Source: Paratrimastix pyriformis
Lineage: Eukaryota > Preaxostyla > Paratrimastigidae
Reading direction: 5' to 3'
Length of the DNA stretch: 64,000 nucleotides
Assembly (NCBI GenBank): GCA_027972325.1
Contig: JAPMOS010000147.1
Location: 22,500-86,499 of the forward strand
In this document: positions 7,222-64,000 of the stretch, in pieces
How the letters are laid out: every line of letters begins with the position of its first letter
Numbering within the stretch: the stretch's first letter is position 1
Notes under the pieces: generated by a model
Seen by the model: only the letters and a program-made list of their open reading frames with translations
The model's database searches: none
What the model was told of the DNA's origin: nothing
Program-made: the position numbers and the translations under genes

Positions 7222-8508
7222 CAGTATGTCCAACAATAAACGAGCCACTCCTTTTCATGTCAGAGCGAGTGCACCAAGAGGGAGCCGGGGATTTTTCTGA
7301 GTGCCACGCATGCACAACACCACAAGGACTCCACCCATCCACTTAGTATTTGGTGTGGCCACCGTGGGCCCGAATGACGGCACGAAGTCGGTCGGGCATC
7401 GAGTTGGCCAACTTTTCGGGGAGGTCGGCGTCCATGGTGGCCCACTCGGCCTTGAGCACCCGGATCAATCCAGCGAGAGTTTCGGGGTGGCGTTCAAGCA
7501 GCTTCCTCTTGAGGAGTGCCCACACGTTTTCCATCGGGTTGAGGTCGGGGCTCTGGGGGGGTAGCCCGATGTCGGTCAAGTTCTCCTCAGCGACCCGGTC
7601 CGTCACCAAGTGGGACCGGTACTTGGGATCGTTGTCGTGCAGCAGCACCCGGCCCTCGGGGCCCTCAACGCACACCTCGAGGGCAGAGGGCACAAGCTCA
7701 TCACTCACAATCCGGGCCATGAGGGGGCCAGTGAGGTTCTCCTGGAAGGAGAACAGGCGTCCCCATCCACCCTGACCGAAGCATCCGTGGAGGTTAATCT
7801 TGGCCGGATGCTTCACAGTGAGGACAGGCTTGCGCTTCCCAGGGTAGCCCCAACTCTTCGTGGCTTGTGCATGCAGGCGGGCGGTGCACTCGTCAGAAAA
7901 GAGCACGCAGCTCCAGTCACGGTGCAGGTTGGCACGGGCAAAGGCGAGCCGTTTCTTCATGATGGCCGGGGTGAGGGTGGGTTTCTTCGGATTGCCCCCC
8001 CAGCGCAGGCCCACGGTGAAGAGGCGCGAGCGAACAGTCTCATGGGAGGGGTGAGTGCCCTTCGTAGTCTTCACTTGTGCAGCAATGGACCGCAGGGAGG
8101 GCTTGGCCGGGGACATGGAGAGGGAAATCATCTTCCGGTCAGTGGGCGGGGTGGTGGCCCTTGTCCGACCAAGATGAGCCTTGTCCGCCAACGGTTGGCC
8201 GGCGCCAACCCGCACCGCCCAGCGTGAGACAGTGTGCCGGTTCACTCCCAATTCGGCTGCCACCGAGGTGCGGGTGCGCCCCTGCTGCACAAAAACCGCG
8301 ACTCGGGCTCGATCGAGGGCAGAAAGTCGAGGCATGGAAAAAATCAATCCTGTGCTCGGTGTGGGTAGGCGTTTGGGGGGAGGTGGATGGCAGACCTGAG
8401 GCACGGCGGAGCACTGAGCATAATGCAAGGGGCCCCCCGGAGCCCGGGACCCCTCTTGCCCGGGGAACCAAAAAATTATGGGTGGCTAGTTTATTGTTGG
8501 ACATACTG
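7222..8508 (-). mobile_element. Tc1/mariner-type DNA transposon (copy 1)
   Basis: 1,287 bp bounded by inverted repeats of about 28 bp starting CAGTATGTCCAACAATAAAC and flanked on both sides by the TA target dinucleotide (7,220-7,221 and 8,509-8,510). It carries one transposase gene. The same transposon sits at the same position in B2 (20,150-21,436). Confidence 0.95.
7343..8335 (-). CDS. Tc1/mariner DD34E transposase
   Basis: 330 residues. The ATG at 8,335 (MPRLSALDRARVAVF) is chosen because upstream codons run into low-complexity sequence. The N-terminus has a helix-turn-helix (TSVAAELGVNRHTVSRWAVR). The catalytic triad is visible: FSDECT, LHDNDPKYRSH and SPDLNPMENVW, with 34 residues between the second Asp and the Glu, as in the Tc1 family. 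The length is normal for the family and the frame has no stop. The protein from copy 2 is identical over the whole frame, so the transposase may be functional. It would cut the element out at its inverted repeats and insert it at TA. Confidence 0.95.
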   Translation of the reverse strand: MPRLSALDRARVAVFVQQGRTRTSVAAELGVNRHTVSRWAVRVGAGQPLADKAHLGRTRATTPPTDRKMISLSMSPAKPSLRSIAAQVKTTKGTHPSHETVRSRLFTVGLRWGGNPKKPTLTPAIMKKRLAFARANLHRDWSCVLFSDECTARLHAQATKSWGYPGKRKPVLTVKHPAKINLHGCFGQGGWGRLFSFQENLTGPLMARIVSDELVPSALEVCVEGPEGRVLLHDNDPKYRSHLVTDRVAEENLTDIGLPPQSPDLNPMENVWALLKRKLLERHPETLAGLIRVLKAEWATMDADLPEKLANSMPDRLRAVIRAHGGHTKY

Positions 8509-12831: not shown

Positions 12832-13437
12832 TCAAACATGGGGACGAAGGGGCGAAGAAAGGACGGGAAAACCAGAAGAAAGTGACGAGGGAAGCGAAAA
12901 AAGGAAACCAAGATGACAGTTAGAACGAAAAGTACTCATTGCGCCAGCCCGAGGGGGGTCTGGACCCCATCCACCAACTATCGAGCGGTATGATAGTTTG
13001 GGTCCCTCGATCCATCCCCCCCACTCGCGATGCACATCTCCCAAAATCCCACGGTTGGCAACTGGAGAAAGATCGCGGGGGCCAATCTTGCGAGGCGGGG
13101 CCGTAGCAGGGTCAGGCGAAGCAGCAGCGCGAGCCACAGACACAGACACAGGCAACAGAGACACACCAGCACGGAAAGGGACAGCAGGGACAGCAGGGAC
13201 AGCAGGGGCAGGGGCAGGGGCAGGGGCAGGGGCAGGGGCAGGGGCAGGGGCAGGGGCAGGGGCAGGGGGGGGGCACAGGGGCAGGTGATGGCGTGGGTGC
13301 AGCCCGAGCAAAAGGATTCGCAGTGGGGGCGGGCGGGCGTGGTGCCGAAGGTGCCGCAAACGGATTGGAAGGAGACTTGGACCGCTCCTTCTTGGCGGCT
13401 GGGCGGTGATCGCCATCGATAGGTGACGGTCCCTCAC
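12832..13437 (-). CDS. E-element protein, 3' part, with Pro-Ala repeat
   Basis: An open frame of about 201 codons. A PAPAPAPA run comes from the GGGGCA hexamer array, followed by a conserved C-terminal block (WGGWIEGPKLSYRS) shared with E2 (WGRWIRGPSKLSYRS). No enzyme motif is present. The pattern of basic and Pro-rich linker plus one conserved motif fits a nucleic-acid-binding ORF1-like protein. This is inference, and the start is missing. Confidence 0.3.
   Translation of the reverse strand: MRDRHLSMAITAQPPRRSGPSLLPIRLRHLRHHARPPPLRILLLGLHPRHHLPLCPPPAPAPAPAPAPAPAPAPAPAPAVPAVPAVPFRAGVSLLPVSVSVARAAASPDPATAPPRKIGPRDLSPVANRGILGDVHREWGGWIEGPKLSYRSIVGGWGPDPPRAGAMSTFRSNCHLGFLFSLPSSLSSGFPVLSSPLRPHV
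13185..13285 (+). repeat. (GGGGCA)n hexamer minisatellite
   Basis: About a dozen near-perfect GGGGCA units, preceded by GGGACAGCA units. It encodes the Pro-Ala run of E1 on the minus strand. Confidence 0.9.
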
Positions 13438-15493
13438 GGGAGGCGTGGGTGGAAGGGTAATTATGGCCCCTCTGACGACGCATGATATCCAGACAATACT
13501 GGGGGCTTTGCCGGACGGGAAAGCGGCTGGCCCGGATGGAGTGACGGCGGAGATGGTCCATGCTTGTCAGGACGAAATTAAGGAGTGGTTGGGGAGGCGA
13601 TACAACGAGATGTTGGAGAAGTCTGAGGTTCCTGAGGAGCTGAAACTCAGCTCGGTCTATATGGCAACCAAATCGCAGACGGAGCATCCGGGGGATCCGG
13701 CCGGTAGAAGGCCTTAACTTTAATACAGGTTTTTTTGAAAGGACTGCAGGTAGTGATTGCCTCGAGATTTCAAGACTGGTGCGTTGAAAAAGGGGTATTC
13801 GGGGCGGAGCAGTTTGGTTTCCTGAGGGATCGGAGGATTGAGACGCCTATTGCCGAGATTTTGGGGGTGTTGACGGACTCGAAGATTCTGGGAGGTAAGG
13901 AGTTCCACATGTGCGCGCTAGATATAAGAAAGGCCTATGATACAGTTGACATGGAGGCGCTCAGAAGGGGGTTGGGAAGGATGGGGTGGAAGAGGAATTT
14001 GTCAGGTATGTGGACAGCTTGTATGAGGGGAGAAAGGCGCGTGTGATCACGGGGTACGGGTTGACGGATAGCTATGACATTGAGAGAGGAATTAGTCAAG
14101 GGGACCCGTTGTCCTGCCTGCTGTTTATCTCCTTCATGGAGGGAGTCTTGGCGGAGGTGAGACGACAGGAGGGGGGCTATATTCTGGATAGCGGCAGGAA
14201 GGTAAAGGTGTTGGCATTTGCGGACGATATTATGTTGGTGACGAGAACAAGGGAACAGATGGTCCGCTTGGTGAATACGGTAAGGCGGAAAGTGGAAGAG
14301 GCTGGTATGGAGCTGTCGTGGAGCAAGTGTGACTACCTGTGTGGCGGGGAAGGGGAAGACGGACTTGGATCTGGGAGAGGGTCGGAAGATCAGAGTGCAG
14401 CAAAGGGTGGAGCAATTCGGTATCTTGGGATATGGATAGATGAGGAGATGAACATGAAGGTCAACACGGAGAAGGTGATCCAGAAAATGTGTGGGCGACT
14501 GCACAGGCTCATGGACAAGAAGGTCCCTCCGAGGTTGATGGTGCAAATGATTAATGAGTGTGTCTCGACTTGCCTACAATACACGGCGAGGCAGTGCCCA
14601 ATGCCGACAAGGGACTTGGAAACACTGAAGCAGAGATATGCGAGGGTGTTCAGGGAAATCGGAGGTTGTATTGGGAAATGCGACCCGGCAGAGGTGCTGT
14701 TCTTTCCGGAGGAGGAAGGGGTATGGGGCTGAAGGACCCGATTGATGTCCATGATATGATGGTGATGACACAAATTCTGGGGAGGATGGCGGACGAGCAG
14801 GGTGTGGAGTGGTGCTGAGGGAGGAGATCGCGCTGCTGCAGAAATTGTGGACGACGCGTGAGCCGCTGTTGGATGATGCAGGGAAGTGGGTGAAGATGCA
14901 CGGGCAGGAGAAGATGCCGGGGGTCGTGATTGGGGCGTTGCAGGTGATGCACAGGAGAGACATGGCGATCCTGAGGGACGGTGAGAAACTGAAGGAGGAA
15001 GTGAAGTACGGCATGCCGACGACACTGGAAGAGATGGCGGAGCCCTGCAAGATAACAAAGAAGCACAGACAGACCCTCATGAAAAGGAAGATTCGGAGTG
15101 TGGCGGACCTCATCATAGGGGGAAGATTTCATTGGAAAGGGGTGATGCCGCAGTATGTGGAGACGATCAAAAAGCGGGTGTGTCTGTATGGTAACAGGGT
15201 GAGTCCGGACTATCTGCAATTGGCGAGGCGGATTCGGGAGGAGGAGTCGGCGGAGGAGGGGCGGAAGAGGCGGAGAGTGGGGAAGGAAAAGGAGGAAGGC
15301 AATGCAGATAAGGGGAATGAAGGAAGGAGTGAGGGGAGTCGGGGGGTTGGGGCGGTCGGGGGGGAAGCGAAACCAAGAGTCAAGAGGCAAGCAAAGTTGC
15401 AGTGCGTCGGGGGGAAGGTGGCAGTGGTGAAACAGAGGAAACATGGGAGGGAGGATGGGGTGGGAAAGGGGGAGAGTAAGAAGGGAAGGAGCG
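13438..15493 (+). mobile_element. LINE (non-LTR) retrotransposon fragment, LINE1
   Basis: Matches LINE2 (57,710-56,890 and 54,685-53,447, minus). It breaks off at 15,493, where element C3 begins, and this is the same LINE position at which C2 interrupts LINE2. No endonuclease domain is present. Confidence 0.85.
13445..15493 (+). pseudogene. LINE reverse transcriptase (frameshifted, 3' part missing)
   Basis: RT motifs in order: LPDGKAAGPDGVTAEM (about 13,508), EQFGFLRDRRIETPIAEI (about 13,810), LDIRKAYDTVD (about 13,918), GISQGDPLSCLLF (about 14,092), the catalytic AFADDIMLV (about 14,215) and IRYLGIWID (about 14,415). A thumb/connection region continues to 15,493 and ends in a Lys/Glu-rich tail. 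Frameshifts occur near 13,715, 13,985, 14,350 and 14,735-14,820. The one near 13,715 (GGCCTTAAC) is also present in LINE2. The missing RNase H and C-terminal region are represented in LINE2 at 30,034-32,463. Confidence 0.88.
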
Positions 15494-20149: not shown

Positions 20150-21436
20150 CAGTATGTCCAACAATAAACTAGCCACCCATAATTTTTTGGTTCCCCGGGC
20201 AAGAGGGGTCCCGGGCTCCGGGGGGCCCCTTGCATTATGCTCAGTGCTCCGCCGTGCCTCAGGTCTGCCATCCACCTCCCCCCAAACGCCTACCCACACC
20301 GAGCACAGGATTGATTTTTTCCATGCCTCGACTTTCTGCCCTCGATCGAGCCCGAGTCGCGGTTTTTGTGCAGCAGGGGCGCACCCGCACCTCGGTGGCA
20401 GCCGAATTGGGAGTGAACCGGCACACTGTCTCACGCTGGGCGGTGCGGGTTGGCGCCGGCCAACCGTTGGCGGACAAGGCTCATCTTGGTCGGACAAGGG
20501 CCACCACCCCGCCCACTGACCGGAAGATGATTTCCCTCTCCATGTCCCCGGCCAAGCCCTCCCTGCGGTCCATTGCTGCACAAGTGAAGACTACGAAGGG
20601 CACTCACCCCTCCCATGAGACTGTTCGCTCGCGCCTCTTCACCGTGGGCCTGCGCTGGGGGGGCAATCCGAAGAAACCCACCCTCACCCCGGCCATCATG
20701 AAGAAACGGCTCGCCTTTGCCCGTGCCAACCTGCACCGTGACTGGAGCTGCGTGCTCTTTTCTGACGAGTGCACCGCCCGCCTGCATGCACAAGCCACGA
20801 AGAGTTGGGGCTACCCTGGGAAGCGCAAGCCTGTCCTCACTGTGAAGCATCCGGCCAAGATTAACCTCCACGGATGCTTCGGTCAGGGTGGATGGGGACG
20901 CCTGTTCTCCTTCCAGGAGAACCTCACTGGCCCCCTCATGGCCCGGATTGTGAGTGATGAGCTTGTGCCCTCTGCCCTCGAGGTGTGCGTTGAGGGCCCC
21001 GAGGGCCGGGTGCTGCTGCACGACAACGATCCCAAGTACCGGTCCCACTTGGTGACGGACCGGGTCGCTGAGGAGAACTTGACCGACATCGGGCTACCCC
21101 CCCAGAGCCCCGACCTCAACCCGATGGAAAACGTGTGGGCACTCCTCAAGAGGAAGCTGCTTGAACGCCACCCCGAAACTCTCGCTGGATTGATCCGGGT
21201 GCTCAAGGCCGAGTGGGCCACCATGGACGCCGACCTCCCCGAAAAGTTGGCCAACTCGATGCCCGACCGACTTCGTGCCGTCATTCGGGCCCACGGTGGC
21301 CACACCAAATACTAAGTGGATGGGTGGAGTCCTTGTGGTGTTGTGCATGCGTGGCACTCAGAAAAATCCCCGGCTCCCTCTTGGTGCACTCGCTCTGACA
21401 TGAAAAGGAGTGGCTCGTTTATTGTTGGACATACTG
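20150..21436 (+). mobile_element. Tc1/mariner-type DNA transposon (copy 2, inside B2)
   Basis: 1,287 bp, the same length as copy 1, with inverted repeats CAGTATGTCCAACAATAAAC and flanking TA (20,148-20,149 and 21,437-21,438). It lies at the same point of the B recombinase as copy 1. Confidence 0.95.
20323..21315 (+). CDS. Tc1/mariner DD34E transposase (identical to copy 1)
   Basis: 330 residues from ATG at 20,323. The protein is identical to that of 7,343-8,335, including the helix-turn-helix and the D, D, E residues with DD34E spacing. Identity without a single substitution implies very recent common ancestry of the two B copies, or gene conversion. Confidence 0.95.
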   Translation: MPRLSALDRARVAVFVQQGRTRTSVAAELGVNRHTVSRWAVRVGAGQPLADKAHLGRTRATTPPTDRKMISLSMSPAKPSLRSIAAQVKTTKGTHPSHETVRSRLFTVGLRWGGNPKKPTLTPAIMKKRLAFARANLHRDWSCVLFSDECTARLHAQATKSWGYPGKRKPVLTVKHPAKINLHGCFGQGGWGRLFSFQENLTGPLMARIVSDELVPSALEVCVEGPEGRVLLHDNDPKYRSHLVTDRVAEENLTDIGLPPQSPDLNPMENVWALLKRKLLERHPETLAGLIRVLKAEWATMDADLPEKLANSMPDRLRAVIRAHGGHTKY

Positions 21437-54685: not shown

Positions 54686-56889
54686 CTATCCATCGTAGAC
54701 TCAGGATAGCAGGCGACAGCCTCCGTCTTCGGCAGTCTAGGTGCTATGACTCCTTGTTCTTCATGATAAACACCACACAATGCAGAAAAAATCAATCACA
54801 AAAAATCGTATGGTCACGACGGGCAGCGTGTCCAATACGTGTCCATAAATCATCACAAAAATAGGAGAGAGAGGTCAAAGGGAGTCTGGAACTTTGGCCG
54901 AAGCCAAAAAATTAAACACGCACAGGAAAGGGGTGAGATGCGCGTGAACGGCCAGATGCGTTGCGCATCCGAATCTCCGAAAACCGTTCGGAGTGTTCCA
55001 GCCACGGTCGCGGCCCCCGCCCATGCGACGCTCGCCGGCCTGGCCGTCGCGTTGCTGCTGCTGCTGGCCGGGCAGGGCGCGCATGCCCTGAGCGAGGCGG
55101 ATGGCGAAGTCGAGCTGCTGGAGGTTCTGGCCCGTGGCGACCTCGGGCGCGGTGCGGACATACTCGTACATGCGAGCCACGTCGGGGGCAAGTGCCGTGT
55201 GCACCCAGGCGAGCCGCTTGCGGTCCACGATGGCGGCGGCAATGGCGCGAGCAAAGCACGAGAGGGCGGCGCGCAAGTCCTCCTCGGTGCAAGGCAGGCG
55301 CGCCAGCCGCTCAAGGTTGAGCGATTCCCGGTGAAGGCGCTGGAGAAAGCGGAATTCGGCCCTGGACTCGCGGGCGAGGCCCGTGACTGAGCCGAGCTGG
55401 GGAAAATCGCTGGGCACAGGGACGCCCCGGACGAAGGCCCGGGAGCGCTCCAGTGCGAGCCTGTCAGAGGCCTCGCGGTCGCCAGGTTGGTGCTGCTGCG
55501 GGTCTGCGGCCTGCCGCTGGTCATCCTCGTCGTTGGCGGCGGCGGCAGCATCGTCCTCGTCCGTCAAGTCACCCTCGGCGGCGCCATCGTCGCCGCTGGG
55601 TGGATCGGCCTCCCCTGGAAGGGTCCCGGGGGCGGCAAGAGCGAGTCGCCTGAAGTCGGCCGGCGCAGCGGCGGAGGTGCCAGACGGAGCGGCCGGCCCA
55701 CGGGTGACAGGCACCCGCTGGCCGACGCCTGGCATGGCCGGAGCGCGGGCGGCATTCGCAGCAGTGAGCTGGGACTCGTCCGGGAGCAGGTTGGACGGGG
55801 CAGGAGCAGGGGCCTGGTCGGGCCGAAAAAACGAGAGCGGAGCAGGCTCATCCGCGGCCGGTCCGGCGGCAGCAGCACCCGGGGGGGCGCCGGCGGCACC
55901 GCGGGCAGCGAAGCCGGCCTTCTGCGCAGAAGGCAAGGTCGCGGAGGCAGCAGCGGCGGCCGCAATCATGGCCCGCTGCTGACCGAGAATGTCCCCCAGC
56001 GAGGCCTCGATCACGCGCCGGATGTGGGCGTTGAGGCCTTCCAGGGACATGGGACAATCCGCAGAGTGATTCTGCAGGGCCGGTGTCTGCACGGGAGGCC
56101 CAGGGGGGGCCCGCAGGAGGGCTCCCTCGGTCCCGCCCATGCGCATCCCGTCATCATCGAGGTCCGTGAAAGGTGCCGTAGCGGTCGCCGTGGCCGGGCC
56201 GGGCGCAGTCTGCGCAGCGGAAGCAGCCTGGCGGACAGCCGTCGCCGAAAGGGTACTCGAAGAGCCACTCGAAGAGCCGATGGGGGTCGGATTGGGCGTC
56301 CCAGGAGTGGGGACCTTGATGATGAGCTTGGGCATCGGAGGGTCCTGAAGTCGATGAGTAGAGGCCATTGTAGTCGTAGTCCTTGAAAAAACGGGTGTTC
56401 ACCACGAAAAAACGAAGGCACTGTGCTGGTCCGGGGCGCCCCCTTAAGTACTCGGAATTGGGCGGGAACGGTCCGACCGCACTTTTTCATCTTTTTCCCT
56501 GTTGTGTTTTCGCCTCCGCTCTTTTTACCACCCCCTTTCGGACCTCTTCCGAAGCCCAAAGTGGGGTCACTTCACGGTTCGATCATGGACCGTTGACCCG
56601 GAACACTCCGAACGGTTTTCGGAGATTCGGATGCGCAACGCATCTGGCCGTTCACGCGCATCTCACCCCTTTCCTGTGCGTGTTTAATTTTTTGGCTTCG
56701 GCCAAAGTTCCAGACTCCCTTTGACCTCTCTCTCCTATTTTTGTGATGATTTATGGACACGTATTGGACACGCTGCCCGTCGTGACCATACGATTTTTTG
56801 TGATTGATTTTTTCTGCATTGTGTGGTGTTTATCATGAAGAACAAGGAGTCATAGCACCTATCCTGCCTCGACTTCGGCTGTCGACTCA
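54686..56889 (-). mobile_element. Family A derivative A' (2,204 bp, gag only)
   Basis: Same outer ends as A (GTCGACTCA at 56,889 and CTATCCATCG at 54,686 on the plus strand), with its own diverged terminal repeats (about 54,686-55,000 and 56,385-56,889). RT and recombinase are absent. Inserted in LINE2 between CAACATA and ATATCG; LINE1 reads across the site at 14,230/14,231. No target duplication. Confidence 0.93.
54875..56368 (-). CDS. Family A Gag-like protein, long form, intact but ending in the terminal repeat
   Basis: 497 codons from ATG at 56,368 (MASTHRLQDPPMPKLIIKVP). It contains the long-form segment of about 86 residues (RAFVRGVPVPSDFPQLGSVT, LPCTEEDLRAALSCFARAIA) between the acidic linker and the VARMYEYVRTAPEVATGQNL block. 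The Arg/Gly tail is lost: after GGGRDRGWN the frame runs into the terminal repeat and stops at 54,875. A nucleic-acid-binding tail would therefore be missing. Confidence 0.75.
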   Translation of the reverse strand: MASTHRLQDPPMPKLIIKVPTPGTPNPTPIGSSSGSSSTLSATAVRQAASAAQTAPGPATATATAPFTDLDDDGMRMGGTEGALLRAPPGPPVQTPALQNHSADCPMSLEGLNAHIRRVIEASLGDILGQQRAMIAAAAAASATLPSAQKAGFAARGAAGAPPGAAAAGPAADEPAPLSFFRPDQAPAPAPSNLLPDESQLTAANAARAPAMPGVGQRVPVTRGPAAPSGTSAAAPADFRRLALAAPGTLPGEADPPSGDDGAAEGDLTDEDDAAAAANDEDDQRQAADPQQHQPGDREASDRLALERSRAFVRGVPVPSDFPQLGSVTGLARESRAEFRFLQRLHRESLNLERLARLPCTEEDLRAALSCFARAIAAAIVDRKRLAWVHTALAPDVARMYEYVRTAPEVATGQNLQQLDFAIRLAQGMRALPGQQQQQRDGQAGERRMGGGRDRGWNTPNGFRRFGCATHLAVHAHLTPFLCVFNFLASAKVPDSL

Positions 56890-57827
56890 ATATCGTCCGC
56901 AAATGCCAACACCTTTACCTTCCTGCCGCTATCCAGAATATAGCCCCCCTCCTGTCGTCTCACCTCCGCCAAGACTCCCTCCATGAAGGAGATAAACAGC
57001 AGGCAGGACAACGGGTCCCCTTGACTAATTCCTCTCTCAATGTCATAGCTATCCGTCAACCCGTACCCCGTGATCACACGCGCCTTTCTCCCCTCATACA
57101 AGCTGTCCACATACCTGACAAATTCCTCTTCCACCCCCATCCTTCCCAACCCCCTTCTGAGCGCCTCCATGTCAACTGTATCATAGGCCTTTCTTATATC
57201 TAGCGCGCACATGTGGAACTCCTTACCTCCCAGAATCTTCGAGTCCGTCAACACCCCCAAAATCTCGGCAATAGGCGTCTCAATCCTCCGATCCCTCAGG
57301 AAACCAAACTGCTCCGCCCCGAATACCCCTTTTTCAACGCACCAGTCTTGAAATCTCGAGGCAATCACTACCTGCAGTCCTTTCAAAAAAACCTGTATTA
57401 AAGTTAAGGCCTTCTACCGGCCGGATCCCCCGGATGCTCCGTCTGCGATTTGGTTGCCATATAGACCGAGCTGAGTTTCAGCTCCTCAGGAACCTCAGAC
57501 TTCTCCAACATCTCGTTGTATCGCCTCCCCAACCACTCCTTAATTTCGTCCTGACAAGCATGGACCATCTCCGCCGTCACTCCATCCGGGCCAGCCGCTT
57601 TCCCGTCCGGCAAAGCCCCCAGTATTGTCTGGATATCATGCGTCGTCAGAGGGGCCATAATTACCCTTCCACCCACGCCTCCCGTTACCTCCTTCAGTCT
57701 TTGCCCCCGTCCCCACCGGCAGCTTCCTTTTTGCAAGCCCCGCCATGAATCCCCACCATCCCCTCTTAACCTCCGCCGGGTCCGACACCACCCTGTCCAT
57801 CTTCCCCTCCGCATTTCGAGTCACGAG

Positions 57828-58725
57828 TAGTTATAAAAGGAGAGTTCTGAGACAATCGATTTTCACACACAATTTTTCACGCTTGCGTTGTTATTTGAGG
57901 CAAAAATCGATTTCTTCAGAACAAAATCTTTTTTTCTCATTATATTTTATCGAAAAGGAGCATTTTATTTTATCAGCTTTGAATGATTTAAGCATTAATT
58001 TTCTCGAGCTACAAACGTTATTTGAGGCAAAAATCGATTTCTTCAGAGCAAAATCTTTTTCTCAATGTTTTTAAGTAAAACGAGCATTTTATTTTTATCA
58101 GCTTGGAATGATTTAAGCATCAATTCATTCGAGCTACAAACGAAATTAGAGGCAAAAAGCGAATTCTCCATGCATTTTCAATTTTTTTCCATTTTTTTGT
58201 CCCAGAAATTATTTTGGCATTTTTGTCAAATCAAACAATTCAATCATCTTAAGCATCAAACGAAAGAGAATTCAATCAGAAACAGCTTATCTCTTCATTC
58301 AAAATAAAATTGTGACAAAAGTGCTTTTCAAAAGTGATCATTAAATAATGCATCAATCTTAAGTAAATGATGCATTCTTTTTGATTGAATCAGCTCAAAT
58401 AATTGATTCTAAGAAAATGGAAAAGTATGACAAAATGATAAAACAATATGAAATTTGATTTCAGCACCGAGCCCTTTAAAGCAAAAATGTACTCAGCTTT
58501 GACATGAATTGAAAGAGAAATCAATCAGATTTACCTTCTATTTCAAAGAGATAAAAAACAGCGTTTCATCATTTGAGCTCTGAGTGTTTTAAGATGATAA
58601 TTCAATGAGCAACTGATGATATAATGAGGAATATCTCATCAGAATGCGCACTCATTATAATCACTGAATCAGTAAAGGTATTTTAAGAAAAATTATTATC
58701 TATAGTTAGTATATAATAACCAGTA
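57828..58725. repeat. AT-rich non-coding border with tandem repeats of about 125-130 bp
   Basis: GAGGCAAAAATCGATTTCTT occurs at about 57,897 and 58,026, with a diverged copy near 58,151. GAATGATTTAAGCAT and TCGAGCTACAAACG blocks alternate with them at the same period. Further down, GAAAGAGAATTCAATCAG and GAAAGAGAAATCAATCAG form another loose pair. Base composition changes sharply at about 57,828. No gene is seen before 58,726. Confidence 0.7.
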
Positions 58726-59406
58726 ATGTCAAGCAAGCAATCTGTTGAGTCTGATATGCCAGTTGTGATCATTCCGAATGATTTTGTAGTGAAGAAAGTG
58801 TCAATTGAAGCATTATCTGAATCATCCAGGAAGCAAGAGAAGACAATGAAGATGTGTCACATTGAACATAATGGTAGTAACCTATTAGTTCAGACGCCAC
58901 AAATCGACTTAGGACCTTATGGAGTGAACTTTTACGAGAACACTAAAACCATCAGGTTACCAGTTGAGAATGTAGGCGATGACTTTAAGAAGATGATAGA
59001 CAAGCTCGAGAAGTACTGTCAAAACAATGTGGAAAGCATTGTGAATGGTACTTTTGAAGAAGGCAAACCAGATGAATTTCAATACAAATCATTTGCCAAG
59101 ACGAGTGATAATGACAAGTTTCCGAGCTACTATAAAGTAGCAGTTGGATATGCAGATACACTGTATCCGAGTGTCTTCCGAAAAGATGAAGATGGTGAGG
59201 TAAAACAGGACACAACAATACAAACAAACGAGGATTTACGGAAAGCCGTCAATCCAGGGAGCACAGTTAAAATGATAGTCCAACTTAAAGTATGGGTTGA
59301 TGATAAGCAGCATTATGGAATCTCAGCCTCATGCAAACAGCTACTTATAGTGAAAGAAGGGAAGAAGAAAGCAGACAATTCAAAGTCTCTTTTTAAATAT
59401 TGGTAG
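58726..59406 (+). CDS. Virus-type small protein, possible single-stranded-DNA-binding protein
   Basis: 226 residues from ATG at 58,726, uninterrupted, in AT-rich sequence with AT-biased codons. No Shine-Dalgarno sequence. The layout (LLVQTPQIDLGPYGVNFYEN near residue 50, a helical FKKMIDKLEKYCQ, a FPSYYKVAVGY strand region, KVWVDDKQHYGISASCKQLL near the C-terminus) resembles, from memory, a family of unknown-function or putative ssDNA-binding proteins widespread in large and mid-size eukaryotic DNA viruses. The match is by motif arrangement only. The Lys-rich C-terminus (KEGKKKADNSKSLFKYW) is compatible with nucleic-acid binding. Its 3' end overlaps the convergent fibre gene by 14 bp. Confidence 0.55.
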   Translation: MSSKQSVESDMPVVIIPNDFVVKKVSIEALSESSRKQEKTMKMCHIEHNGSNLLVQTPQIDLGPYGVNFYENTKTIRLPVENVGDDFKKMIDKLEKYCQNNVESIVNGTFEEGKPDEFQYKSFAKTSDNDKFPSYYKVAVGYADTLYPSVFRKDEDGEVKQDTTIQTNEDLRKAVNPGSTVKMIVQLKVWVDDKQHYGISASCKQLLIVKEGKKKADNSKSLFKYW

Positions 59407-62336
59407 CTTGTCGTACATTGTTTATCTTCCATGTAGCCTTCAGTGTTGAGTCATCAGCGAGATAGAATGCCATTTTACCATTATCAATTGAAGAAGGTTG
59501 AGTAGTTTCGAACGTAACAGAAATCATCTGTCTGATTTCCGCTACAGCAGTTTTAAGTGTTTCTATTTGAGCTTTTAATGACATGTTTTCATCAGTGAGT
59601 GAATCACAATGTGCCTTTAGTTTTTCATCTCATTGAGCATCATGAAAGGCAAACGATCTTGTCGAATACCTTCAACAGCGCCATCCTTGTAATATACTAA
59701 ATCAGGACATACATCAACATTCTTCAGCTATTAGACCATAGCATTTGACCTTTTCTCATCAGCCTTGTAATTGAAATTGACGGGACGTAACTTATATAAA
59801 TATGACGTATCAGCCATATCCATTACGTTTTCCTTGTATCGAATTGAGGATGTAGGAACATGTATTTTTCCAGTAGTATCGATGTACATTTGCAGAGAAT
59901 CACCAGTTGATTGAGCAGTAGCTAATATGACAGGTGAAGTCACACGAGTCTTACCAAAGTTAATCACATTAGCCCCTCCAACATTAAAAACAACTCCAAA
60001 GTTAGCGTTATTTGCATTAAAGTATGAACTTGTAGTATCACCAGAAATGTTAATAAGATTATTATTCGATGAGATATTAGTGGAAGAGCCACTATTAGCA
60101 GCGAGAGACTGAGCAGAAGTGGAAGTTACAGTAGTTGCGTGATATTACCATTTGCATCACTATATAGATATCCGGAGGTGTTGTTAGGTAGTTTTAAGCC
60201 ACCATTCAGTGTTGCCATGCCACGTAGCCAAAGATTACCACTGTTTGCATTGCATGAGAGGTTCATGACATTGTCACTATTTTCGAATATCATACCGCAG
60301 TTAGCATTGTTATATGCACGAAGTCGAAGTGCTTGACCAGAGAAATCATTTCCAACGCATGCAGTTGAATTGTCAAATGAAGTGGTTGCAGACATGTAAG
60401 CGCCCCAGGCGTTATCAACAGTTCCATTGAAACCAATTCTAAGCCCGAGATTTGCGGAAGAAGCAGGTGAACTGATTTTAGGGCTTGCCAAATTTCCACC
60501 AGCCGTCAGCAGTCCACGAGTCCAGAAAGTACCAGTGTTAGCATTTGCAGAGAAGTTGCATACATTGTTTGAGTTTTCGAAGATTATTCCAGTTGAAGAA
60601 CTGTCATAGACACGGAATCGAATTGCATTGTTCATATCAAAGCCGGCGCATGCAGAACCAGTACCAGAGAAGTCAGCATTTGCACCAGAGCTTGCTTGAT
60701 AAATGCCCCAGTTTGTGTTACCATAAGGATACATTGATATTTTGAGAGAGCCAGTGTTTGAGCCAATAAATGGACATTCAAATGGAAATGCAGTCTTAAC
60801 TTTAGTGAATATATAAAAGCATGTCAGTTGCGCCAATAGTGAATGTATGATTTGGAGAAGTGTCATTAGCATTGTAATCACTATTGTATTTTATGTTGCC
60901 TTTTGACTTAATAGTGAAGGTAGTGTTATCAGCATTTTCGAATGTGGTGTCAGTGGAATTTACCGAAGTTACCTATTTTGAGAAGTATTAAGAGGAATTA
61001 TGTTGTCAACAGCTATTGGATTGTTTATGATTAAGTTGCCACCAGTAGTTGTTATTGAATTAGCCGTTACAGCGAGTGGAAAAGCACCAGTTACAACATA
61101 TCCAGATGAGTCAGTTCCGAGGATTGGAGCATCTGTTATTGTAGTCTTTAGAGTTCCAGTGCATAGAACAGCACCAGAAGTGATAGAATTGCATGAGATG
61201 GCAGGAACACTCAATGTTGCACCAGTAGGAGCCACTTTATCAGCTACCACAGTAGCACAGTATATTGCTATTAGCATCACGTTGCACAATTGTTGAAGGC
61301 GCATTAGGAATAGATAAAGAGGCTATTTTGCATCAGTCACAGCTCCATCAACGATATCAGTCGATATGATTTTAGATACAGCCAATTCACCAGTTGCAGT
61401 GGAATGAACTATATTAGCAGAAGCCATTGTAGGAATGATAATTTTTCCAGCATCATTCACTTGGAACAAATGTAGAGGCGCCATTGTTTGTAGTTACAGT
61501 GAAGTTTTTGCCCGTTTCATTATTGTCATTATCAATATCAATGTTTACATTACCATTTGATTGAATGTCTAAGTTCCAGAAGTCACTGATTTGACAGAGT
61601 TTGCTAATACAGTGTTTGCAGAGGATTGTTTACTTTAGTGTCACCACTTGCATTTCTAAGAACAATAGTGGAGGCAGAACTTGCATCAGTAGCAGTTGTA
61701 GCAGAGTTAGCTATTTTCCAGCGGTGCTAATAGTGTTAAGTTTAGAATCATTAATTGTGCCATCAGTAATATCAGAATTTATCAAAGTTGATGATGACAT
61801 ATTTCCAGAGGCGTCACAATGAACCAATCCAGCGGTGGTAAAAGAGGTGATTTGTGCATTAGTTGCGGTGATTTTTCCAGAAGCCAGAAGAACATTATTA
61901 ACTGAAGTGCCATTACCGGCAGACATTTCTGTGATGGTATTGTATTTAGCAGTGGTTGATTCATTTGCAGCTGAATTCTTCCAGCATTGTGTGAAGCGTC
62001 ATAAAGTAGTGTTTGTTTATCGACAAGTCCAGTTGACACATCCACATTAGACAGTTGTCCAATTGACATGTCAGGAATAGGAGCAGAAGGCAAAATGACA
62101 TCACTATTGAATTTGACAAGTCCATTAAAATAGTTTCACCATTGACTGTATGAGTGCCATTGATTGTAAGATTGTTTCCTAACACTGTTTCTCCATCAAT
62201 AGTTACATCTTTCTTTAATACAGCATCATCTAAGTTCAAGAGGATTTTCGTTCTGAGTTTCGACGGCTACTCTATCGTAACAAAAGTGTTAGAGAGAGAT
62301 TCTGTCAGTAAAGATGACTTTCTTTTGTGGTTCCAT
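59393..62336 (-). pseudogene. Fibre-like virion protein with C-terminal S74 (endosialidase-type) chaperone domain, many frameshifts
   Basis: About 980 codons from ATG at 62,336 (MEPQKKVIFTDRISL) to the TAA at 59,393. Blocks in changing frames: KDVTIDGETVLGNNLTINGT; repetitive beta-rich stretches (NSDITDGTINDSKLN, STDIVDGAVTDAK, TITDAPILGTDSSGYVVTG); two copies of a roughly 95-residue unit (GIIFENSNNVCNFSANANTG and GMIFENSDNVMNLSCNANSG). The C-terminus has SSIRYKENVMDM, YLYKLRPVNFNYKADE and a helix (LKAQIETLKTAVAEIRQMIS). The RYKENV and P-V-x-F-x-Y motifs mark the intramolecular chaperone that trimerises and cleaves itself from phage and viral fibres. More than ten single-base shifts, many at homopolymers, interrupt it, yet coding sense continues each time. 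Confidence 0.8.
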
Positions 62337-62405
62337 CTATACCGCAATAGAAAAATACAAAAACATGAAAAAGATTAAGGTGTTGATTGATGATAAGTTT
62401 ATAGC

Positions 62406-62816
62406 TTAGAGGATGTAAGGACGAATCATGTCACCGCCAATTACAGAGCAAATTACACAACGATTGAGCAGACTCACATCAAGTTTTTGAACCGAATGCA
62501 AAACGAAGAGCCAGATACACAGCCATTGACATGCCACCATCAACGAGAGCATTCTTTAGCATGGTTGAGTCGAATGATAATCCAGCCATCAGGTCTCTTC
62601 CATCGAGGAGATTTTGTAGAATAGGAGCCACAATTGTAAGTCCACCAGCTCCAGCCAGCCCGACATTTAGATAGTCAGCATAATCACTCCGGTGACAGAG
62701 TTTTTAGTGATAAGCCAATACAATGAGACACCACTGATTGATTTGATGGTGATGTCTCTTTTAGGTCGATTGCAGATTTAGTGTGTCGAAGCCATGAATG
62801 ATTCAATACTATTCAT
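62406..62816 (-). pseudogene. Small hydrophobic protein, frameshifted, unknown
   Basis: About 137 codons from ATG at 62,816 (MNSIESFMAST). Blocks: ISGVSLYWLITKNSVTG, DYADYLNVGLAGAGGLTIVA, DGRDLMAGLSFDSTM, MSMAVYLALRFAFGS, and a final CVICSVIGGDMIRPYIL. At least three frameshifts. Gly/Ala/Leu-rich segments could form two to three membrane helices. It lies between the fibre gene and another small membrane-anchored gene on the same strand. No family recognised. Confidence 0.45.
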
Positions 62817-62843
62817 GGATAAAAAATTAAGGACAAATAAGAA

Positions 62844-63183
62844 TTAGGAGAAGAAGACATACTTAGTTGTGATTAGAAGAAGACATCCGATTCCGATGTA
62901 GCCGAACGTGGTAATACAGTTTGCGACACGGGTGAGTTTTTGGACAGTGTCGAGGGTTTCTTTTGGCTTTAACGACAACAGACTTAGCGGCTTTCATATT
63001 AGAACTGACTTGTCCGAGTAAGTTTCCACCGAGAATCATCATCAATTGATACTTAGGTTGCATCATCTTAGACTTTAATAAGCCTTCCATATCACCATTC
63101 TTAATCATTTCATCGAGGCATTTTGAATCTCCTCTTGAGAACATTCCAATGAGTCACGATAACCATGAAGGATATTTAGGCAT
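62844..63183 (-). pseudogene. Small protein with C-terminal transmembrane segment, frameshifted
   Basis: About 113 codons from ATG at 63,183 (MPKYPSWLS). A helical, charged body (CLDEMIKNGDMEGLLKSKMM, LMMILGGNLLGQVSSNMKAA) is followed, after a shift near 62,965, by LDTVQKLTRVANCITTFGYI and a hydrophobic end (GIGCLLLITTKYVFFS). An early shift lies near 63,155. The start codon overlaps the stop of the upstream gene (TAATG), a compact arrangement. No family recognised; a virion membrane protein is one possibility. Confidence 0.45.
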
Positions 63184-63867
63184 TATCTTTCAGTTATATC
63201 AGCAGTCTTAAGCAGCATTTCAGTTATGTTTGCTACTGTGAAAGGATTCATCCATTTTGCATCAACAACTTTAAAGAGGTCAATTTGAATTGCATCAGTT
63301 CATCATCAGACATTGCGGCGAAGAATGCCACATTGTATTTTTCTTGGTCCATACCGAGTTGATTAGTCAGTACGAGCAGCTCATTGATGTCGTTTTCACG
63401 TTTGAGTGAAATCTTTGCCTTCTTAGGTTTCTTTGGAGGCTTAGGGAAATGAATTGCACGAGGTGCTCTTGGACGTGCTTTTGAGTGCTTGTTTTGCTTG
63501 TTCCTGTTGTTGTTCGAATTCTTCTACAGCCTGTTGCATGAGTTTTGTTCAGTTTCGACTTGTTCCTTTGTCTTAAACACAATTTTACCATCAGGTATTT
63601 CATTGTGTGGTTGGTCTTTACAGAAGAAGGAAGTCCATATTATCAATCAGTTCATCCGACGATTTTTCTTTAGGCTCTTCTTTGGAGCTCATCTTTTGAG
63701 TCATCATCAGACTCCTCAGTATCATTTGATTCAACTGAGGCATCATCATTGACACTTTGAGAATCTTCACTATTTTCATCATCTCCATAAGGTATAGATA
63801 TTTCACTCGATGAAGAGACAAAAGACTGTAAATCTCATCAGATTCAGATACACTTTCCTTAAGACAT
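63183..63867 (-). pseudogene. Acidic-then-basic protein, frameshifted, unknown
   Basis: About 228 codons from a probable ATG at 63,867. The N-terminus is Ser/Asp/Glu-rich (SVNDDASVESNDTEESDDDS), the middle Lys/Glu/Gln-rich (VEEFEQQQEQAKQALK), then a basic Pro stretch (RAIHFPKPPKKPKKAKIS). The C-terminal part looks folded (INELLVLTNQLGMDQEKYNV, KWMNPFTVANITEMLLKTAD). At least five frameshifts. The stop overlaps the next start as TAATG. The acidic/basic architecture suggests a protein- or DNA-binding role, but nothing specific can be assigned. Confidence 0.45.
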
Positions 63868-63926
63868 ATTGGTATGGCAGTTCACACACAAATATTTTTC
63901 TATATAGATTATAGTTACAATTCAAA
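63868..63926. promoter_or_regulatory. Divergent intergenic region with candidate AT-rich promoter motif
   Basis: 59 bp between two divergent starts. Contains ATTTTTCTATATAGATTATAG. A similar ATTTTTCTAT...TATAG lies just before the fibre start (62,337-62,360, minus), and TATCTATAGTTAGTATA lies 15-35 bp before the gene at 58,726. Candidate motif only. Confidence 0.3.
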
Positions 63927-64000
63927 ATGTCGTCTGACTCAATTCCAAGGCAAAGAATGGTGAAAGCCATTCATTTCGAATCCCATGGGATATGGACATT
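63927..64000 (+). CDS. Start of an unidentified gene, cut by the window edge
   Basis: ATG at 63,927 (MSSDSIPRQRMVKAIHFESH) reads open to the end of the window. It starts like the gene at 58,726 (MSSKQS) and is divergent from the gene at 63,183-63,867. Too short to identify. Confidence 0.4.
   Translation, partial: MSSDSIPRQRMVKAIHFESHGIWT

What the first reader, a model, noticed from the sequence alone, without database searches (positions are those of the whole stretch)
57828..64000. AT-rich virus-like gene island abutting a GC-rich retroelement nest
Base composition changes abruptly at about 57,828. The AT-rich side is compact: convergent genes overlap by 14 bp, a TAATG stop-start overlap occurs, and one intergenic region is only 59 bp. 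It encodes a fibre with an S74 chaperone, small membrane-type proteins and a protein resembling a eukaryotic DNA-virus family. Nothing on this side resembles the neighbouring elements. An integrated or endogenised DNA virus (virophage, Polinton-like or larger) fits best. YR retroelements clustering with endogenous virophage-like elements is known from the flagellate Cafeteria, so the association may be meaningful.
Basis: partly seen in the sequence, partly recalled or inferred. Interest (0 to 1): 0.85.

Follow-up and report, generated by a model that had tools for sequence, protein, structure and literature searches.

The report
Polinton provirus family in Paratrimastix
The AT-rich stretch is the left end of a roughly 23-kilobase virus-like jumping element (a polinton) that sits in about a hundred places in the genome of the anaerobic flagellate Paratrimastix pyriformis; it is a real insertion, of a kind already known from other protists.

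Summary
The AT-rich island is real and is the left 6.2 kb of an endogenous polinton. The contig (G000:C54) ends at window position 64,000, so the rest is missing here. The host is Paratrimastix pyriformis. The boundary is a true element end at 57,826: an uninterrupted copy of the flanking repeat shows the empty site, and the same terminus (5'-AGTAGTTATAAAAGG) borders unrelated flanks elsewhere. A 24-base form of it occurs 158 times in the genome, 0 in the control. Relatives on C18, C410 and C477 run 22.6-23.5 kb from end to end. The copies read carry the 226-aa gene, an S74 fibre, an A32-type packaging ATPase, a putative 402-aa capsid protein, a protein-primed PolB with an endonuclease VII domain and a retrovirus-type integrase. 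A 6-bp target duplication is clear in C18 and likely in C477; C410 shows 4 bp. A special link to YR retroelements and a viral family for the 226-aa protein were not supported by what I tested. Much of the gene breakage in the window looks like sequencing indels. New member of a known kind; I found no report of it in the papers searched.

The parts
57826..58715 (+). Left terminal inverted repeat, about 890 bp, beginning 5'-AGTAGTTATAAAAGG; the right-hand end of the C410 element matches it in inverted orientation
   Evidence: matches L031:5514-4641 at 94%; 24-base terminus 158 times in the genome, control 0
57890..58198 (+). Two overlapping direct repeats of about 183 bp, offset by 127 bp, inside the TIR
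   Evidence: 57,890-58,072 against 58,017-58,198, 82.8% identical
58726..59406 (+). 226-aa protein of unknown family, first gene inside the TIR, intact here; matches merge to about 100 places in the genome
59393..62370 (-). Fibre gene with Peptidase_S74 (chaperone of endosialidase). Shown by protein match for 59,620-62,069, in four segments lying in two frames; the C-terminal ORF 59,393-59,584 and the N-terminal limit near 62,370 are inferred
   Evidence: tblastn with the 823-aa ORF of L025; S74, E 3.3e-7, on that ORF
62409..62816 (-). Small (about 140 aa in L025) membrane-type protein, in two frames here
   Evidence: called membrane-type by eye only
62866..63867 (-). Acidic protein (335 aa in L025), in pieces lying in three frames here
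63927..64000 (+). Start of the A32-like packaging ATPase gene, cut by the contig end
   Evidence: contig C54 ends at 86,499 = window 64,000; DNA alignment to L025 runs into its ATPase gene; (Pox_A32, E 7.2e-10, on L025)
56859..57825 (-). Not part of the element: reverse-transcriptase repeat (LINE-like, type judged from recall) interrupted by it; 39 further copies among those scored, one read and uninterrupted at this point
   Evidence: (RVT_1, E 1.6e-16)

Best explanation
The island is the left end of an endogenous polinton, a DNA virus-like element of about 23 kb in Paratrimastix pyriformis. Shown: inverted terminal repeats, a 5'-AG terminus, insertion into pre-existing repeats with a 6-bp target duplication (clear in one of three elements, likely in a second), and a gene set of rve integrase, protein-primed PolB carrying an endonuclease VII domain, A32-type ATPase, S74 fibre and a conserved capsid-like protein. 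Inferred from the known families: the polymerase starts at the inverted ends with a terminal-protein primer, the integrase inserts the linear DNA, the ATPase packages it into an icosahedral capsid built from the 402-aa protein, and the fibre, trimerised by its S74 chaperone, binds the host. The 226-aa protein may be an early DNA-binding factor; that is a guess (about 0.3). The window copy is cut off by the contig end.
For: Terminus 158 times with control 0. Empty site at 57,825/57,826. Same end in different flanks; none of the 19 flanks compared matches another. Elements followed end to end: C18:51,497-74,066, C410:211,045-234,514 and C477:113,386-136,606; C18 has a 6-bp ATCACA duplication, and the C477 flanks overlap by 7 bp on an uninterrupted copy. 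TIR about 890 bp. rve, A32 ATPase and S74. PolB: 7,848 relatives among 7,985 scored candidates, 7 of the 120 listed carrying PF03175, conserved exonuclease/polymerase motifs in a 10-sequence alignment (motif names recalled). Virus contig L042 from IMG/VR has the same module set.
Against: The capsid call is indirect: no Pfam, PDB or viral-contig relative, no match to the capsid candidate of L042, and a poor model. No maturation protease or minor capsid protein was recognised. C410 has only a 4-bp flank match. PF03175 was not hit in our own PolB. The C18 copy shows only part of PolB (residues 519-1190) and its 226-aa gene in two pieces; the C410 PolB has six stops.
Confidence: 0.93

Rival explanations
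1. A mavirus-type virophage (like the EMALEs of Cafeteria) that depends on a giant virus, rather than a polinton or polinton-like virus.
For: Low-GC element in a high-GC flagellate genome, TIRs of about 0.9 kb and a length near 20 kb, as reported for EMALEs (PMC8547959, passages); mavirus also has pPolB and an rve integrase (PMC7805220, passages).
Against: [quoted passage not shown] No superfamily 3 helicase or virophage-type capsid hit among the 20 ORFs scanned; not every ORF was scanned.
Confidence: 0.12
2. A pure transposon (Maverick) that has lost the ability to form particles.
For: High copy number, nested insertions, many fragments and degraded copies.
Against: 31 of 116 rows of the capsid-like gene cover the whole 319-aa query piece without a stop, and the ATPase is open in many copies. 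Conservation of both suggests fairly recent use.
Confidence: 0.2
3. Chimeric contig or contaminant DNA joined to a host repeat.
For: The island runs to the contig end, and the culture is polyxenic (PMC10703272, section 6).
Against: Same ends inside many contigs with different flanks; exact empty site; about 100 loci on 79 contigs.
Confidence: 0.01

Closest known systems
Polintons/Mavericks (pPolB + rve integrase elements)
   Same: pPolB and rve integrase together, TIRs, 5'-AG end, 6-bp duplication in C18, about 23 kb, A32-type ATPase
   Different: Capsid candidate too diverged to match anything searched; S74 fibre present; no maturation protease recognised
Polinton-like viruses, e.g. IMGVR_UViG_3300028392_002905 (L042)
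   Same: S74 fibre, A32 ATPase, GIY-YIG, EndoVII-type PolB (43% identity over 1,082 positions; its Endonuclease_7 match is below cut-off) and rve integrase (27% over 259) on one 17.4-kb contig
   Different: Its 477-aa capsid candidate and its 151-aa small protein do not match ours; gene order differs
Metamonada capsid group (Trichomonas, Streblomastix) of PMC10120064
   Same: Streblomastix is also one of the Preaxostyla (listed with them in PMC10703272)
EMALE virophages of Cafeteria burkhardae (PMC8547959)
   Same: Low-GC TIR-bounded elements in a GC-rich flagellate genome with many retroelements
   Different: PolB keeps exonuclease motifs and an EndoVII domain; no special link to YR retroelements seen in what was tested

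Membership tests
Polinton | rve-type integrase | tested here: met
   PF00665 on L032:3677-4708, E 2.6e-9, 37.7 bits against cut-off 32.6; the shorter C410 copy reaches 31.3, just below
[quoted passage not shown]
   long relatives at 43-54% identity, 7 of 120 listed carrying PF03175; invariant DFE and DTD motifs; PF03175 itself not hit in our copy
Polinton | terminal inverted repeats with 5'-AG ends | tested here: met
   that 5'-AG is typical is recalled
Polinton | about 6-bp target-site duplication | tested here: met
   C18 6 of 6 bases; C477 7-bp overlap with a few extra terminal bases; C410 only 4 bp (not met there). The 6-bp norm is recalled; 5-7 bp is given for PLVs in PMC7805220 (passages)
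Polinton | A32-type packaging ATPase | tested here: met
   PF04665 E 7.2e-10, 39.2 bits against cut-off 22.8
Polinton | double jelly-roll major capsid protein | tested here: inconclusive
   402-aa candidate next to the ATPase, similar to the 418-aa protein of a second lineage (E 4e-10 for the single comparison); AlphaFold2 pLDDT 33.7 on its relative P0008; no PDB hit; no match to L042 capsid candidate
Polinton | maturation protease and minor capsid protein | tested here: inconclusive
   not recognised in the 20 ORFs scanned; not every ORF was scanned
Mavirus-type virophage | pPolB with only a remnant exonuclease domain | tested here: not met
   exonuclease motif DFE kept and invariant
Mavirus-type virophage | separate superfamily 3 helicase | tested here: inconclusive
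   no helicase family among the 20 ORFs scanned; not every ORF was scanned
Mavirus-type virophage | dependence on a giant virus | not testable with these tools
   needs culture work

The most novel reading that the evidence does not exclude
Paratrimastix carries at least two separate populations of particle-forming polintons: an AT-rich one (the window) with about 100 loci, and a GC-matched one whose capsid-like gene is 99-100% identical and unbroken in 19 copies. One or both could still be moving or making particles, and could serve the host as a store of antiviral or gene-transfer elements in a lineage (Preaxostyla) known for losing mitochondria.
Probability: 0.3. Interest if true: 0.6.

Novelty: new member of a known kind. 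Interest (0 to 1): 0.42.

Why it matters
Polinton-like proviruses are known across protists (PMC10120064, passages). In the searches I ran (listings) I saw no paper that reports them in Paratrimastix; of the 22 papers holding that name I searched inside two, and the main text of its genome paper has no occurrence of virus, viral, transpos- or Polinton. PMC10120064 does not name Paratrimastix in its main text; supplements were not readable. About 100 loci in a 56-Mb genome would add a long-read, TIR-resolved population from a free-living metamonad, with a second lineage of different base composition alongside it. It also warns annotators: some predicted host genes (PAPYR_13119, 10457, 9146 and others) belong to the element.

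Tried and rejected
Structure prediction gave poor models for both proteins tried: the 226-aa protein (pLDDT 42.0, 4-sequence alignment) and the 402-aa relative P0008 (33.7, single sequence); no fold search was run on them. Seven scans of viral contigs were answered: six (three single type-1 proteins and the 226-aa protein, the 418-aa protein, the capsid alignment) found no relative, and the PolB alignment found one contig. Dating by left-right TIR divergence was dropped: left and right TIRs of one element (98.3% and 98.4% identical, gaps not counted) differ more than left TIRs of different elements (98.9-99.6%), so left and right forms seem to be inherited separately. The 18S search for host identity did not complete; the host came from protein names and contig lengths instead. 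A chimeric contig and a bacterial or phage contaminant were rejected.

Results against my reading: the C410 flanks share only 4 bp; the candidate capsid protein matches nothing known; many copies are fragments or carry stops. The indel-rich comparison that makes me suspect sequencing error in the window is not unique to it: C410 against C41 has 90 mismatches and 32 gap events. Counts from the genome search are lower bounds: one search scored 37 of 280 candidates, one search scored 40 of 189, one search scored 40 of 203.
Full report
What was checked. The window is G000:C54:22,500-86,499; the contig ends at 86,499, the last base of the window. The genome has 56,060,509 bases in 495 contigs. The nearest proteins of the 226-aa ORF are annotated as Paratrimastix pyriformis (PAPYR_ names), two of the contigs concerned having the lengths of C41 (106,711) and C129 (49,528). 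The published assembly of that species has 56.6 Mb and 60.9% GC (PMC10703272, section 6).

The boundary. GC is 51-74% in 1-kb steps up to 57,000 and 32-40% from 58,001 on. DNA matches to other copies begin at 57,826 in L011, L014, L020, L028 and L030 and at 57,822 in L025. The ends found share 5'-AGTAGTTATAAAAGG (one has an A less), with different flanks before it. An exact 24-base form of the end occurs 83 times forward and 75 times reverse in the genome, against 0 and 0 for the control. The flanking DNA (57,450-57,825) is part of a repeat with an RVT_1 domain; 39 further copies at 98-99% identity were listed, 40 of 203 candidates being scored. The one copy read, on C124, runs straight on past the point where the element begins. 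So the boundary is an insertion point, not an assembly join.

The element. The integrase-side end on C410 matches window 57,826-58,715 in inverted orientation, so the TIR is about 890 bp. Two elements can be followed from end to end by coordinates: C18:51,497-74,066 (22,570 bp) and C410:211,045-234,514 (23,470 bp). A third, C477:113,386-136,606, of a lineage about 75% identical in DNA, lies inside another element of its own lineage, near the start of that element's capsid-like gene. C18 is flanked by ATCACA on both sides. The C477 flanks overlap by 7 bp on an uninterrupted copy, with a few extra terminal bases. C410 shares only CGAG. Gene order along C18 and C410 is: 226-aa gene, ATPase, capsid candidate, PolB (opposite strand), integrase; on C18 the PolB match is partial and in both the 226-aa gene is in two pieces. 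In the second C410 copy (L025) the fibre lies between the 226-aa gene and the ATPase.

The proteins. Integrase: PF00665. ATPase: Pox_A32, E 7.2e-10, with a C2H2 finger below cut-off. Fibre: Peptidase_S74, E 3.3e-7. PolB: 1,259 aa on C477, Endonuclease_7 at E 1.9e-5, with 7,848 relatives among 7,985 scored candidates; the 120 listed are 45-54% identical, from metagenomes and from animals such as Dendronephthya and Gigantopelta, and 7 of them carry PF03175. Residues of its exonuclease and polymerase motifs and of the endonuclease domain are invariant in ten sequences (motif names recalled). PMC11071308 (passages) says that polinton pPolBs carry homing endonuclease domains at various positions. 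A separate GIY-YIG protein is present on C477. Capsid candidate: 402 aa, next to the ATPase, no Pfam hit, 22% identical over 264 positions to a 418-aa protein of a second lineage (E 4e-10). Neither sequence search nor modelling confirmed the fold, so the name is inferred. The 226-aa protein has no known family.

Copy number and state. The 226-aa protein gave 151 matches; the 150 listed rows merge to 100 loci on 79 contigs. Of those rows, 45 cover at least 222 of 226 residues at 97-100% identity, 44 of them without an internal stop (counted by eye). Many others are fragments or carry stops. For the capsid candidate 31 of 116 rows cover the whole 319-aa query piece without a stop. In the window copy the fibre, membrane-type and acidic-protein genes are spread over two or three frames each. 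Against the near-identical copy L025 the window has 37 mismatches but 56 gap events, 39 of them bases missing in the window; the pair L025/L030 has 130 mismatches and 7 gap events, though L025/L012 has 90 and 32. This points mainly to uncorrected long-read indels at the contig end rather than decay, without proving it. PMC10120064 (passages) reports such artefacts elsewhere.

Surroundings. Of 19 flanks compared (one only 34 bases long, two belonging to one element), none matched another, so no preferred site was seen. Six flanks (five besides the window's own) match repeats of this window over long stretches, a seventh has only a 62-base match, and four (one of them already counted) match related AT-rich elements. 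The element thus lands in repeat-rich DNA of many kinds. Of 28 long open stretches in the window left of the island 10 were scanned: they include a Tc1/mariner-like transposase, an RVT_1 element and one weak phage-integrase SAM match below cut-off. The interrupted repeat is itself an RVT_1, LINE-like one. That is no evidence for a special tie to YR retroelements as in Cafeteria (PMC8547959, passages), but the nest was not fully annotated.

Placement and novelty. One IMG/VR contig carries the same modules, so the combination is known in nature. S74 fibres are described as ubiquitous in PLVs of most eukaryotic groups, except ochrophytes, parabasalids and amoebozoans (PMC12220804, passages). PMC10120064 has a Metamonada capsid group including Streblomastix, also Preaxostyla (passages). 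I found no report for Paratrimastix; supplementary files and most preprints could not be read. Verdict: a new member of a known kind, securely placed as polinton-like, with the capsid assignment still to be proved.

Noticed in passing
L013 (G000:C41:67,001-77,000), with copies on C313, C215, C310, C487, C447, C122, C173 and others: A second polinton-like lineage of about 55% GC: ORF with a Pox_A32 match, capsid-like protein of 418 aa, and a protein beginning MGAS that recalls poxvirus L1-type membrane proteins (recalled, untested). 19 copies of the capsid-like gene are 99-100% identical and without stops; a third type (37% identical) is on C111.
   Followed up: partly
G000:C477:102,027-136,606 and beyond: A diverged element (about 75% DNA identity to the window copy) interrupted near the start of its capsid-like gene by another element of its lineage: nested proviruses.
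   Followed up: yes
G000:C54:3,096-5,171 (left of the window): Another integrase-side end of the same family, with stops in the integrase, near the other end of the window's contig.
   Followed up: no
G000:C419:207-10,206: Four integrase matches on one strand about 3 kb apart, suggesting a tandem array of short derivatives.
   Followed up: no
window 7,346-8,485 (-) and 20,173-21,312 (+): ORFs of 380 aa on opposite strands whose printed first 70 residues are identical; the first has DDE_3 and Tc3-type HTH domains (Tc1/mariner-like).
   Followed up: no
window 57,226-57,685 and 13,436-13,895: A 460-bp stretch of the interrupted RT repeat recurs at 100% identity in inverted orientation elsewhere in the window.
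   Followed up: no
C410 and C18 elements, TIRs: Left and right TIRs of one element differ more than left TIRs of different elements, so they seem to be inherited as two forms and cannot be used to date insertions.
   Followed up: partly
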